Source of the DNA: an uncultured Cetobacterium sp.
GTDB taxonomy: Bacteria > Fusobacteriota > Fusobacteriia > Fusobacteriales > Fusobacteriaceae
Assembly (NCBI RefSeq): GCF_945952365.1
Contig: NZ_CAMFHX010000025.1
Location: forward strand, 1 to 38,373
Direction: 5' to 3'
Length of the DNA: 38,373 bases
Positions 11,662 to 15,024 of the stretch are shown here, in pieces. Under the pieces are notes generated by a model. That model did not search any database and was not told the DNA's origin. It saw nothing but the letters and a program-made list of their open reading frames with translations. Position 1 is the stretch's first letter. Every line of letters begins with the position of its first letter. A program made the translations under genes and the position numbers.

Positions 11662-12906
11662 ATGAATATTGAAAAATTATTAGAAGAGCTGTATTCATAT
11701 TCACTTCATGGAATAAAACTGGGATTAAAAAATATTGAGGATATTTGTAAAGCTATGAATAATCCCCAAATGAATTATAAAACAATACATGTAGCTGGAA
11801 CTAACGGAAAAGGATCTACATCAACAACTATAGAAACTGTTTTAATAGAATCTGGAAGTAAAGTTGGAAAATATACGTCACCCCATATACTTAGATTTAA
11901 TGAGAGAATATCTGTAAATGGAATAGAGATAACAGATGAAGAGATAGCATACTACTATTCTTATATAAAAAATATTGTTAAGGAGTTAGAAATAACTCCT
12001 ACTTTCTTTGAAGTTACAACGGCAATGATGTTTAAATATTTTTCGGATAAAAAAGTTGATTATGCAGTAATCGAAGTTGGTATGGGTGGAAGATTTGATG
12101 CAACAAACGTTATAAAGGGTGACATCTGTGTGATAACAAATGTAAGTTTAGATCACACTGATTTTTTAGGAAAAACAATATATGATATAACTTGTGAAAA
12201 GGCAGGGATAATAAAACCTGATTCTAAAGTCTTTATAGGGTCTTCTGACGCTGATTTTATAAAAGGAATCGAGGAAAAGAGTAAAACTTATACAAATGTT
12301 TTAGAAAAATACAGATTAGCAAAGTATTATTTAGATTTTAAAAACTTTAAAACAGTGATAGATATAGAGGGTGAAAGATTTATTTTCTCTTTATTTGGAG
12401 ATTATCAGTATAAGAATTTTTTATGTGCTTATGAAGTATTAAAAGAGTTGAAAATTCCTGTTAAAACTATAAAAAAAGCTGTTGAAAAAGTAAAATGGCA
12501 GTGTAGATTTGAAGTTATCTCTTCTCAGGATAAAGTTTTGATTTTAGATGGAGCTCATAACGAAGATGGAATGAAGACACTTTGTGATACATTGAGATTG
12601 GGTTATGAAAAGGATGAGATAGTAGCTGTTGTTTCTATTTTAAAAGATAAAGATTATACAAAAATTCTAAAAATTTTAGAACCTTGTGTAAAAAAGATAA
12701 TCTTTACATCTCTAGCTGAAAATAAAAGAGGACAAACTGGTTTTGAACTTTATGAAGGTTCAAATAAAGTTGATAAAGAATATCGTGAAGATATATTTGA
12801 AGCGTATGAATTAGCTAAAGAATATAATAGTAAAGCAATTTTATTCTGTGGTTCTTTTTATCTGTTAAGTAAATTCAAAGAGGATGTACTAAAAAATGAA
12901 AAGTAA
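11662..12906 (+). CDS. folC: Folylpolyglutamate synthase / dihydrofolate synthase
   Basis: A Mur-ligase-family enzyme that adds glutamate to dihydropteroate and/or folates. The ATP loop AGTNGKGS is near residue 45. SPHILRFNERISVNG, EVGMGGRFDATN, and NVSLDHTDFLG with EKAGIIKP follow in family order, and LDGAHNEDGM marks the C-terminal domain. The length (414) is normal. Whether it does both reactions cannot be told. Its end overlaps the next small gene by 11 bases. Confidence 0.96.
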   Translation: MNIEKLLEELYSYSLHGIKLGLKNIEDICKAMNNPQMNYKTIHVAGTNGKGSTSTTIETVLIESGSKVGKYTSPHILRFNERISVNGIEITDEEIAYYYSYIKNIVKELEITPTFFEVTTAMMFKYFSDKKVDYAVIEVGMGGRFDATNVIKGDICVITNVSLDHTDFLGKTIYDITCEKAGIIKPDSKVFIGSSDADFIKGIEEKSKTYTNVLEKYRLAKYYLDFKNFKTVIDIEGERFIFSLFGDYQYKNFLCAYEVLKELKIPVKTIKKAVEKVKWQCRFEVISSQDKVLILDGAHNEDGMKTLCDTLRLGYEKDEIVAVVSILKDKDYTKILKILEPCVKKIIFTSLAENKRGQTGFELYEGSNKVDKEYREDIFEAYELAKEYNSKAILFCGSFYLLSKFKEDVLKNEK

Positions 12907-13084
12907 GGGGTTATTTAAAATTTTGATACTAGTTATAATTTTAATAATTAGCTATTTTTTATATAAACAGATTATGGTTTTAAAATTTGAGTATATGAAA
13001 CGTGAACAAAAAAAAGAGATGTTTTTAGAGAAAATAGATAAAACTTACAAAGAGAGAGAAAGTGAGTTTTATAAAGCTAACTAG
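12896..13084 (+). CDS. Small single-TM membrane protein of unknown function
   Basis: A 62-residue protein with one hydrophobic helix (about residues 7-24) and a charged Lys/Glu-rich tail (about 30-62) likely to be helical. The layout resembles short bitopic division proteins of the FtsL/DivIC type, but I see no diagnostic motif and do not assign it. It overlaps folC by 11 bases and lies 11 bases before hprK, so it is very probably translated as part of the same operon. Confidence 0.7.
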   Translation: MKSKGLFKILILVIILIISYFLYKQIMVLKFEYMKREQKKEMFLEKIDKTYKERESEFYKAN

Positions 13085-13095
13085 GGGAGTTTAAA

Positions 13096-15024
13096 ATGGA
13101 AAGAATAAAAAAGAGAAAGTTTCCAAAAGTTAAAGATTTAGCGGATGCTTTAGGCTTAGTACCTCTTTTAGATGTGAATATGGAATCAGAGATAACGACT
13201 CAGAGTGTATATAGAGTTGGTTATGAGTTAAATGGTTTTTTTTCAGAAGGAGAAGATCTTTTAATAAATGTTAATGTTTTAGGAAGAAAAGAGATTTCCT
13301 ACTTAGGGCAAATGGATATAGAGAAGCGAAGTGAAATTTTAAACAGATATATGAGTCATCCCTTTCCTGCACTTGTTGTAACTATGGAAAATGAAACTGT
13401 TGATGAGATTGTAAGCATAGCTAAAATATATGGAAAGCCAGTGTTGAAATCAAATAATAAAACAATTGAATTTATTAGAAATGCAAAGTTTTATCTGCAA
13501 AAAGTTTTAGCTGAAGAGATACTAATAGATGAATATATACTTTTAGATGTCTATGGTGTTGGATTACTATTGACAGGGTATGAGGATGCAAGATTAGGTG
13601 CAACAGTAGAACTGCTTGAAAGAGGTCATAAGTTTATAACTGACACTCGTCTAAAAATTAGAAATATAGCAGATAGATTTATATTGGGTTCTAATACAGC
13701 TGATAAAGAGAATGGAGATAGTCATTTCTATCTTTTTGGAAAAGATGGCAATGATATAGATGTAACAACACACTTTGGTATAAAAAGTACAAGAAAAGAG
13801 AAAAAAATAAATCTGTTGATAGAGTTAGAAAAGTGGGACGAAAAAAAATTCTATGATAGATTAGGATTAGATGAACTTCACGAAGAGTTTTTAGGATTTA
13901 AAATTCCAAAAGTAACTCTTCCTGTAAGAAAAGGAAGAAATCTAGCAATAATAATTGAAACAGCAGCAATAAATTATAGATTGAAAAAAACAGGGGTAAA
14001 TTCAGCTGAATATTTTTGGAAAGAATCTAAGAAGCTGATAGAAGAGAATAGAGAAAATAAAAAGAGAGGTTTAGTTGTGAATGATAAAACAAGTATGCCA
14101 GTAAGATATGTAAAATCAAGATTCAGTTTGAATGTGTTAAATGGAGAGGAGTATCTAGATACAAGGTACATAACGACAACAGGAGTGTATAGACCTTCGT
14201 TGGCTTTAACTGGATATTTTGATATGTATGGGGAAGAAGGTTATAAAGGATTACAACTTTTTACAGATACAGAGTTTAAGTATTTAGAAAGTATTTCTGT
14301 AGAGAATAGAGAGAAAAATCTTGAAAGATATTTGAAAGAGGATTTTCCTGCAATAATAATATCTGGAGTAAAAGATATTCCAAGTTATTTTTTAGATAAA
14401 ATTATTGAGAAAAATATAATTTTATTAGAAACTAAATTAGATAGACCAAGTCATGTAGTAGCAACATTCAGTGCGTATTTAGAAAACTACTTTGCACCTT
14501 CAGCATCGGTTCATGGGGTCTTTGTAGAACTTTATGGATTTGGTGTATTACTAACTGGAAAAAGTGGTATAGGTAAAAGTGAAACGGCTTTAGAATTGAT
14601 ACACAGGGGTCATAGATTGATAGCAGATGACTCTGTTAGATTTGAAAAAGGGGTCATAGGAGATATCACAGGAAGAGCTTCTAAATTGCCATATTTTATG
14701 GAGATTCGTGGACTTGGAATAATAGATGTAAAAGCCTTATATGGAGTGGGAGCAGTAAGGATAAGTAAGAGGCTTGACATAATAATTGAATTGCAAGAGT
14801 TAAAAAGTGAAGACTATTTAACAGCGATGGATTATCAAGAATCGACAGAGATGCTATTAGGAAATGAAATCCCTAAGATAAAGTTATATATATCTTCAGG
14901 AAGAAATGCAGCAGCTATGGTGGAAATAGCAGTTATGAATTTAATGGCAAAAAGAATGGGGTATAATTCGGAAGAGGTTTATTTAAAAGAGTTGAAAAAT
15001 AAAAACTATAGAGAAAATAATTAA
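13096..15024 (+). CDS. hprK: Double-length HPr kinase/phosphorylase: degenerate N-half fused to intact C-half
   Basis: HprK phosphorylates HPr of the sugar PTS on a serine and removes the phosphate, linking glycolytic state to carbon control. Normal HprK has about 310 residues; this protein has 642 and contains two full copies. The C-terminal copy (~330-642) is intact: catalytic His473 (SVHG), P-loop G488-S495 (GKSGIGKS), LIADD, and the signature MEIRGLGIIDV with Glu536. The N-terminal copy (~1-320) aligns throughout (DVYGVGLLLTG, LLERGH, IPKVTLPVRKGRN). Its P-loop is replaced by GYEDARLGA (161-169), the His position is Glu146, and the E-x-R-G signature is gone. It is probably a regulatory or structural pseudo-kinase half. 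Confidence 0.93.
   Translation: MERIKKRKFPKVKDLADALGLVPLLDVNMESEITTQSVYRVGYELNGFFSEGEDLLINVNVLGRKEISYLGQMDIEKRSEILNRYMSHPFPALVVTMENETVDEIVSIAKIYGKPVLKSNNKTIEFIRNAKFYLQKVLAEEILIDEYILLDVYGVGLLLTGYEDARLGATVELLERGHKFITDTRLKIRNIADRFILGSNTADKENGDSHFYLFGKDGNDIDVTTHFGIKSTRKEKKINLLIELEKWDEKKFYDRLGLDELHEEFLGFKIPKVTLPVRKGRNLAIIIETAAINYRLKKTGVNSAEYFWKESKKLIEENRENKKRGLVVNDKTSMPVRYVKSRFSLNVLNGEEYLDTRYITTTGVYRPSLALTGYFDMYGEEGYKGLQLFTDTEFKYLESISVENREKNLERYLKEDFPAIIISGVKDIPSYFLDKIIEKNIILLETKLDRPSHVVATFSAYLENYFAPSASVHGVFVELYGFGVLLTGKSGIGKSETALELIHRGHRLIADDSVRFEKGVIGDITGRASKLPYFMEIRGLGIIDVKALYGVGAVRISKRLDIIIELQELKSEDYLTAMDYQESTEMLLGNEIPKIKLYISSGRNAAAMVEIAVMNLMAKRMGYNSEEVYLKELKNKNYRENN

What the first reader, a model, noticed from the sequence alone, without database searches (positions are those of the whole stretch)
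13096..15024. HPr kinase built from two tandem copies, the first a pseudo-kinase
HprK is normally about 310 residues and forms hexamers. Here 642 residues hold two full copies. The second is intact (His473, P-loop 488-495, Glu536). The first keeps the fold-defining sequence but has GYEDARLGA in place of the P-loop, Glu146 in place of the catalytic His, and no E-x-R-G signature. Fusing a dead copy to a live one would force a fixed pairing in the hexamer and could create a new regulatory or HPr-binding surface for the kinase/phosphorylase balance.
Basis: partly seen in the sequence, partly recalled or inferred. Interest (0 to 1): 0.75.

Follow-up and report, generated by a model that had tools for sequence, protein, structure and literature searches.

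The report
Kinase with active site split between copies
Fusobacteria carry a sugar-control kinase made of two fused copies in which each copy has lost what the other kept, so the seemingly dead first copy most likely still supplies half of the working active site.

Summary
Window 13096-15024 (Cetobacterium) is one 642-aa frame with two full HPr kinase/phosphorylase (HprK) copies, 28% identical. The tandem in Fusobacterium nucleatum is already in print (Comas 2008, PMC2405797).

The first copy lacks the catalytic core (His140, P-loop, Asp179, ExRG). The "intact" second copy lacks the tail (W237, R245, G247, K3-loop P266), and the first copy keeps that tail. In 64 of 64 full-length tandems, copy 2 keeps all nine core residues scored and copy 1 keeps all three tail residues scored.

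In canonical HprK hexamers these tail elements come from the neighbouring subunit. The best reading is therefore an obligate composite active site: core from copy 2, Arg-loop, K3-loop and C-terminal helix from copy 1.

One reduced genome has a 269-aa version that deletes both N-domains and most of copy 1's core, and keeps copy 1's tail plus copy 2's core. The matching HPr keeps Ser46 in 68 of 68 kinase-bearing genomes and has Asn in 20 of 20 kinase-less genomes that keep that HPr (at least two losses).

Not shown: coordinates of the composite site, oligomeric state, or activity.

The parts
13096..15024 (+). hprK tandem gene, 642 aa, two fused HPr kinase/phosphorylase copies
   Evidence: TIGR00679 499 bits over the whole protein
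13096..14061 (+). copy 1 (residues 1-322): full HprK fold, degenerate catalytic core, conserved tail
   Evidence: PF02603 and PF07475; AF2 model pLDDT 87.3 aligns to 1ko7 Z 26.4, rmsd 3.2, 283 aligned
13513..13815 (+). copy 1 degenerate core (residues 140-240)
   Evidence: identity to canonical consensus 0.315 against 0.545 for copy 2; copy 2 higher in 64 of 64
13576..13602 (+). GYEDARLGA in place of the P-loop (residues 161-169)
   Evidence: P-loop G160, S162, E163 kept in 0 of 64 copy-1 sequences
13816..14055 (+). copy 1 conserved tail (residues 241-320): flexible loop, K3-loop, C-terminal helices; proposed trans half of the active site
   Evidence: identity 0.529 against 0.255 for copy 2; copy 1 higher in 64 of 64
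13858..13860 (+). Arg255 = canonical Arg245, the loop residue that reaches the neighbouring subunit's site
   Evidence: Arg in 64 of 64 copy-1, 4 of 64 copy-2, 105 of 105 canonical sequences
13921..13938 (+). PVRKGR, K3-loop of copy 1 (residues 276-281 = canonical 266-271)
   Evidence: P266: 64 of 64 copy 1, 0 of 64 copy 2, 105 of 105 canonical
14062..15021 (+). copy 2 (residues 323-642): intact catalytic core, degenerate tail
   Evidence: model residues 333-634 align to 1ko7 Z 25.3, rmsd 2.7
14497..14781 (+). copy 2 catalytic core (residues 468-562): His473, P-loop 488-495, Asp511/Asp512, Glu536-x-Arg538-Gly539
   Evidence: all nine core residues scored are kept in 64 of 64
14782..15021 (+). 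copy 2 degenerate tail (residues 563-642): YLTAMD for YDRLG, YISSGR for PVRPGR
   Evidence: W237 0 of 64, R245 4 of 64, G247 5 of 64, P266 0 of 64

Best explanation
This is the HPr(Ser46) kinase/phosphorylase of Fusobacteriota, duplicated and fused in or before the common ancestor of the sampled species. Its two copies have since degenerated reciprocally. Copy 2 supplies the cis half of the active site (His140, P-loop, Asp178/179, ExRG). Copy 1 has lost these but supplies the trans half, which in canonical hexamers comes from the neighbouring subunit: the Arg245 loop, the K3-loop tied to phosphorylase activity, and the C-terminal helix that touches HPr. The working site is thus copy-2 core plus copy-1 tail. 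The mirror site (copy-1 core plus copy-2 tail) is dead twice over. Three chains would make a pseudo-hexamer with three live sites instead of six. The substrate is the second HPr of these genomes (GLHARPS...NGKSIMGLM), at Ser46. SHOWN: the reciprocal residue pattern, its phylum-wide conservation, the natural short form, and the co-loss with Ser46. INFERRED: the physical composite site, the three-chain assembly, and both enzyme activities.
For: (1) phmmer joins one canonical HprK (1ko7) to copy 2 for residues 7-226 and to copy 1 for residues 220-305; 1jb1 and 2qmh split the same way. (2) 64 of 64 tandems: copy 2 closer to canonical in the core, copy 1 closer in the tail; copy 2 keeps all 9 scored core residues and copy 1 all 3 scored tail residues, while copy 1 keeps at most 2 of 6 core and copy 2 at most 1 of 3 tail residues. 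Of 51 canonical-conserved columns, core: 16 kept by copy 2 only, 0 by copy 1 only; tail: 6 kept by copy 1 only, 0 by copy 2 only; Fisher p 1.3e-5, columns treated as independent. The switch lies inside one folded domain, about residues 221-231. (3) Literature: HPr contacts two adjacent subunits, the catalytic site of one and the C-terminal helix and Arg245 loop of the other; an adjacent subunit's K3-loop occupies the site between P-loop and K3-loop (PMC9399212, passages); HPr binds where two subunits overlap in a hexamer with 3-fold and 2-fold axes (PMC9138534, passages). (4) Short form in G067 (269 aa): no N-domains, most of copy 1's core deleted, copy 1's R245, G247, P266, G270, R271 and copy 2's His, P-loop, DD, ExRG kept; same neighbours MtnN and NrnA. 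(5) Second HPr: Ser46 in 68 of 68 kinase-bearing genomes, Asn in 20 of 20 kinase-less genomes with an orthologue; at least two losses on an NrnA tree. (6) Copies 1 and 2 are each one clade, so the split is old.
Against: No coordinates were available, so the cross-subunit geometry rests on published descriptions read as passages, not on a measured distance in this protein. No oligomer was predicted. Some kinases in the family might work without the tail, and copy 1's tail could be kept for packing or allostery rather than catalysis. Four of 64 copy-2 sequences carry an Arg at column 245 (L040, L041, L042, L044), though each keeps only one of the three tail residues scored. The canonical sets were partly chosen by core motifs, which makes core columns look more conserved than a blind sample would. 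The short form is one genome at 88% completeness. HPr co-loss counts are not independent events.
Confidence: 0.78

Rival explanations
1. Copy 2 alone is the enzyme, perhaps kinase only. Copy 1 is a structural or allosteric pseudo-kinase whose tail is conserved for hexamer packing, as the first reader broadly proposed.
For: Copy 1 keeps the whole HprK fold (Z 26.4 to 1ko7) and structural glycines (G148, G150, G155, G193, G218 in 64 of 64). A proposed allosteric N-terminal domain is described for plant PDRP (PMC9138534, passage).
Against: It does not explain why copy 2 lost the residues that act in trans while copy 1 kept those very residues, nor why the 269-aa short form drops most of copy 1's core and N-domain but keeps its Arg, K3-loop and helix.
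Confidence: 0.14
2. Division of labour: copy 2 is the kinase, and copy 1's tail is needed only for the phosphorylase reaction, so the fusion tunes the kinase/phosphorylase balance. (A special case of the composite site, so its probability overlaps with the main one.)
For: The K3-loop (266-271) is the element tied to dephosphorylation, and V267F is in the kinase conformation (PMC9399212 and PMC9138534, passages). Copy 2's K3-loop is YISSGR against PVRKGR in copy 1.
Against: Arg245 and the C-terminal helix are described as general HPr contacts, not only phosphorylase elements.
Confidence: 0.3
3. Copy 1 is a decaying relic with no function, or the fusion is an assembly or gene-model artefact.
For: Copy 1's core is variable (pairwise identity 0.455 among 43 tandems against 0.718 for copy 2's core).
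Against: Copy 1's tail is more conserved (0.613) than copy 2's (0.473); 64 of 64 keep R245, G247 and P266; uninterrupted frames in 64 genomes.
Confidence: 0.01

Closest known systems
Tandem HPrK of Fusobacterium nucleatum (Comas et al. 2008, PMC2405797)
   Same: A fusion of two HPrK domains in tandem, reported as the single exception in 222 genomes; surely the same gene family.
   Different: In the section and passages read (section 7 whole; passages) nothing is said on which residues each copy keeps.
Canonical HprK/P hexamers (L. casei 1jb1/1kkl/1kkm, S. xylosus 1ko7, M. pneumoniae 1knx)
   Same: Same fold for both copies (Z 25.4 for copy 2 to 1kkl; Z 26.4 for copy 1 to 1ko7). Taken together the two copies carry the conserved active-site residues of a canonical chain.
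   Different: The canonical enzyme is about 310 aa and each subunit gives both halves. Here each copy gives one half.
Plant PDRP / bacterial PPSR (pyruvate phosphate dikinase regulatory protein)
   Same: A bifunctional P-loop kinase/phosphorylase; in the maize protein the two domains of a chain share a fold and one is catalytic (PMC9138534, passage).
   Different: [quoted passage not shown] no reciprocal loss is described in that passage. Not compared by sequence here.
Tandem-fused archaeal tRNA splicing endonuclease (recalled, from no call)
   Same: Fused repeats of a homo-oligomeric enzyme in which the repeats share out catalytic and structural roles.
   Different: Unrelated fold and reaction; an analogy of principle only.

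Membership tests
HPr(Ser) kinase/phosphorylase (TIGR00679, PF02603 + PF07475) | N-terminal and C-terminal HprK domains by profile | tested here: met
   Both copies over the Pfam cut-offs; whole protein 499 bits, copy 2 290 bits over the TIGR00679 cut-off of 240, copy 1 alone 216 bits, under it
HPr(Ser) kinase/phosphorylase (TIGR00679, PF02603 + PF07475) | Catalytic core: His140, P-loop GxxGxGKS, Asp178/179, ExRG | tested here: met
   Met by copy 2 (64 of 64); not met by copy 1
HPr(Ser) kinase/phosphorylase (TIGR00679, PF02603 + PF07475) | Tail: Arg245 loop, K3-loop PVRPGRN, C-terminal helix | tested here: met
   Met by copy 1 (R245, G247, P266 in 64 of 64); not met by copy 2. Met for the chain only as a whole
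HPr(Ser) kinase/phosphorylase (TIGR00679, PF02603 + PF07475) | HprK fold | tested here: met
   AF2 models: copy 2 Z 25.3 to 1ko7, copy 1 Z 26.4 to 1ko7
HPr(Ser) kinase/phosphorylase (TIGR00679, PF02603 + PF07475) | A substrate HPr with Ser46 in the same genome | tested here: met
   Own genome: L072/L350 HPr NGKSIMGLM; 68 of 68 kinase-bearing genomes checked
HPr(Ser) kinase/phosphorylase (TIGR00679, PF02603 + PF07475) | Homo-hexamer, six equal sites | not testable with these tools
   No multimer prediction or coordinates; a tandem chain cannot form a strict homo-hexamer of single copies
HPr(Ser) kinase/phosphorylase (TIGR00679, PF02603 + PF07475) | Kinase and phosphorylase activity on HPr | not testable with these tools
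   Needs assay
Pseudokinase with no part in catalysis (copy 1) | Loss of nucleotide-binding and catalytic residues | tested here: met
   His140, G160, S162, E163 in 0 of 64; Lys161 in 39 of 64
Pseudokinase with no part in catalysis (copy 1) | No conserved catalytic element left | tested here: not met
   Trans elements R245, G247, P266 kept in 64 of 64

The most novel reading that the evidence does not exclude
A bacterial protein kinase whose active site has been permanently divided between two fused paralogous domains by reciprocal loss. It would give a three-chain pseudo-hexamer with three live and three doubly dead sites, in which the apparent pseudo-kinase carries the elements that bind HPr and drive dephosphorylation. 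One lineage has trimmed it further to a 269-aa minimal enzyme made of little more than the two retained halves.
Probability: 0.6. Interest if true: 0.82.

Novelty: new variant of a known kind. Interest (0 to 1): 0.72.

Why it matters
Homo-oligomeric enzymes with sites at subunit borders are expected to be able to split cis and trans roles after duplication, but clean, phylum-wide, residue-level cases in protein kinases would be rare (own knowledge, not searched). Here the split can be read off the sequence and is supported by a natural minimal version and by co-loss of the substrate serine. It makes two open points testable: whether HprK needs the neighbour's Arg245 and K3-loop for the kinase step, the phosphorylase step or both, and whether all six sites of the hexamer are needed for regulation. 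It also warns against reading "pseudokinase" from missing P-loops alone, and against calling copy 2 an intact HprK. The own genome has no CcpA over the curated cut-off, so what P-Ser-HPr controls here is itself open.

Tried and rejected
Gene-model error: rejected by 64 uninterrupted frames. The five other phylum genomes with PF07475: G012, G060, G061 cut by contig ends, G056 broken into separate frames, G067 the short form.

Relic copy 1: rejected by tail conservation.

Tandems outside the phylum: none among 127 non-phylum genomes with a PF07475 match at E 1e-20. G148 has two separate genes and G171 a split single copy at a contig end; one search's list of matches was cut by length, its table of genomes with a match was not. 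None among 76 of the 80 best genome-contig loci, all single-copy frames of at most 400 aa; the other 4 are Fusobacteriota. That scan used core patterns and keeps the best 80 only.

Model-based proof of the composite site: not possible. The AF2 models give no coordinates or PAE to scripts, and single-chain prediction cannot build the three-chain assembly. EMBO J 2001 and PNAS 2002 structure papers are not held. PMC8004850 and PMC11204831 (passages) gave nothing on cross-subunit residues.

Clade relation of copies 1 and 2 to each other: the quick tree makes each one clade (99, 98) but its root is a midpoint, so whether they are sisters is not shown.

Results against: four copy-2 sequences have Arg at column 245; two kinase-less genomes (G076, G081) carry a third HPr paralogue with Ser at that place (KSVLG), and the ptsI-linked HPr keeps KSLL in many genomes with or without the kinase, so only the second HPr tracks the kinase. 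I class L282, L284, L296 and L297 as not orthologous to the second HPr by sequence and left them out of the 20. Nine of 29 kinase-less genomes have no second HPr orthologue; one of 69 kinase-bearing genomes (G060) gave no HPr hit. Dropped canonical: L103 (no frame with my P-loop and ExRG patterns); the 29 unnamed and 76 named canonicals were kept by core patterns, so core conservation among canonicals is biased upward, tail conservation is not. The losses tree lacks G064, G082 and G091 (no match or no locus) and is one gene.

Not in print: ten searches of the open-licence library found the tandem only in PMC2405797; most subscription papers and all supplements are outside this.

Full report
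What is there. Window 13096-15024 (+) is a single 642-aa frame in a genome whose nearest named relative is Cetobacterium (L164, 94% identity). It lies between folC (11662-12906), with a 62-aa frame at 12896-13084 in between, and a YitT-family membrane protein and a DHH phosphoesterase. Both halves carry PF02603 and PF07475; the halves are 28% identical. The tandem arrangement is known: Comas et al. 2008 name Fusobacterium nucleatum as the one exception among 222 genomes, with two HPrK domains in tandem (PMC2405797; passages; section 7).

How widespread. PF07475 was found in 69 of 98 phylum-rank genomes. Sixty-four have a full-length tandem frame (600 aa or more), including a genome related only at class level (G097). 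Four are cut or broken, and one (G067) is short. Outside the phylum, 0 of 127 genomes with a match have a tandem, and 76 named loci of the 80 fetched are single-copy. On a quick tree of 85 rows copy 1 and copy 2 each form one clade (SH-aLRT 99 and 98), so the duplication precedes the sampled species.

The reciprocal pattern. The lead was a phmmer search against solved structures. One canonical chain, 1ko7, matched copy 2 over its residues 7-226 and copy 1 over its residues 220-305, and the L. casei chains 1jb1 and 2qmh split the same way. I aligned 64 copy-1, 64 copy-2 and 105 canonical sequences and numbered columns on a Lacticaseibacillus protein whose His140, P-loop 155-162, Asp178/179, Glu204 and Arg245 fall at the published numbers. 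Over core residues 135-230, identity to the canonical consensus is 0.315 for copy 1 and 0.545 for copy 2, copy 2 higher in 64 of 64. Over tail residues 231-310 it is 0.529 and 0.255, copy 1 higher in 64 of 64. Copy 2 keeps H140, G155, G160, K161, S162, D178, D179, E204 and R206 in 64 of 64, and copy 1 keeps R245, G247 and P266 in 64 of 64. Copy 1 keeps at most two of six core residues (none in 44, one in 19, two in 1) and copy 2 at most one of three tail residues (none in 55, one in 9). Of 51 columns at least 90% identical in canonicals, the core has 16 kept by copy 2 only and none by copy 1 only; the tail has 6 kept by copy 1 only and none by copy 2 only (Fisher p 1.3e-5; columns share one history, so this is descriptive). 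The crossover falls near residues 221-231, inside one folded domain, not at a domain border. Four N-domain columns are also shared out: P38 and Q55 stay in copy 2, G39 and G58 in copy 1.

Why this points to one composite site. In canonical hexamers HPr touches two adjacent subunits: the catalytic site of one, and the C-terminal helix and the flexible-loop Arg245 of the other. An adjacent subunit's K3-loop occupies the site between P-loop and K3-loop, and residues 266-271 are tied to dephosphorylation (PMC9399212, passages). HPr binds where two subunits overlap in a hexamer with a 3-fold axis and three 2-fold axes (PMC9138534, passages). Copy 2 therefore keeps what acts in cis and copy 1 what acts in trans. 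I infer that copy 1 donates its tail to copy 2's core, and that the mirror site is dead on both counts. If so the pairing between copies is mutual, as across a 2-fold axis, and a three-chain particle has three live sites. I did not see coordinates.

A natural minimal version. G067, a 1.2 Mb relative at 88% completeness, has a 269-aa protein (L069:1612-2421) with no PF02603 match and two PF07475 stretches. Aligned to tandems it lacks both N-domains and most of copy 1's core; it keeps a first strand pair, then copy 1's R64 (=R245), G66, P77 (=P266), G81 and R82, then copy 2's H132, P-loop 147-154, D170/D171 and E196-x-R198-G199, and a short degenerate tail. It sits between MtnN and NrnA homologues like the window gene and its genome's second HPr keeps Ser46.

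Substrate. The own genome has two HPr genes. One (L073) lies beside an EI gene; the other (L350:5147-5416) follows a second EI-like gene and carries GLHARPS and NGKSIMGLM. This second HPr has Ser at position 46 in 68 of 68 kinase-bearing genomes where it was found (60 NGKSIM, 7 NGRSIM, 1 DAKSIM) and Asn in 20 of 20 kinase-less genomes that have an orthologue. On an NrnA tree the kinase-less genomes fall in two groups, separated by kinase-bearing G087-G090 and G067. Asn46 occurs in both groups, so the change probably happened twice. The ptsI-linked HPr keeps its Ser in many genomes regardless, and G076 and G081 have a third paralogue with Ser, so only the second HPr tracks the kinase.

Folds. 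AF2 on 43 tandems: pLDDT 83.4, pTM 0.71; copy 2 aligns to 1kkl with Z 25.4 and to 1ko7 with Z 25.3. Copy 1 alone: pLDDT 87.3, Z 26.4, rmsd 3.2, 283 aligned to 1ko7. Both copies keep the HprK fold, so the losses are of residues, not of structure.

Verdict. The interpretation moves from "dead copy fused to a live copy" to "one active site divided between two fused copies". The tandem is known; the reciprocal split, the short form and the HPr co-loss did not appear in ten literature searches of the held library. It is a new variant of a known kind, with a mechanism that simple assays could settle.

Noticed in passing
L350:3384-5416 (G000:C9): A second EI-like gene directly followed by the second HPr, then an IspH-like gene and an S1-domain protein (the last two names from reading the sequence, no family search): a separate phosphotransfer pair that looks like the one under HprK control.
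   Followed up: partly
G000 whole genome: No CcpA over the curated cut-off (best 166.8 bits against 442) despite HprK and Ser46-HPr, so the target of P-Ser-HPr is open.
   Followed up: no
window 12896-13084: 62-aa frame with a hydrophobic start between folC and hprK, overlapping the end of folC; no Pfam match at 0.01. Small or SPOR-like genes sit at a similar place in G097 and G067.
   Followed up: no
window 13096-15024, N-domains: Canonical N-domain residues are shared out too: P38 and Q55 kept in copy 2 only, G39 and G58 in copy 1 only; may mark an N-domain interface.
   Followed up: no
L274-L295 (kinase-less genomes): Ser46 to Asn in the second HPr in both kinase-less groups, never Ala or another residue in the 20 orthologues; Asn may serve a purpose.
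   Followed up: partly
G056:C33 (L068): Tandem hprK broken into separate frames in a 62%-complete genome; sequencing error or true decay not decided.
   Followed up: no
L062, L065, L066, L067 (genus g25): Most diverged tandems: copy-1 tail reads ERLG and GRS instead of DRLG and GRN (seen in L065 and L067) but keeps R245, G247 and P266.
   Followed up: partly
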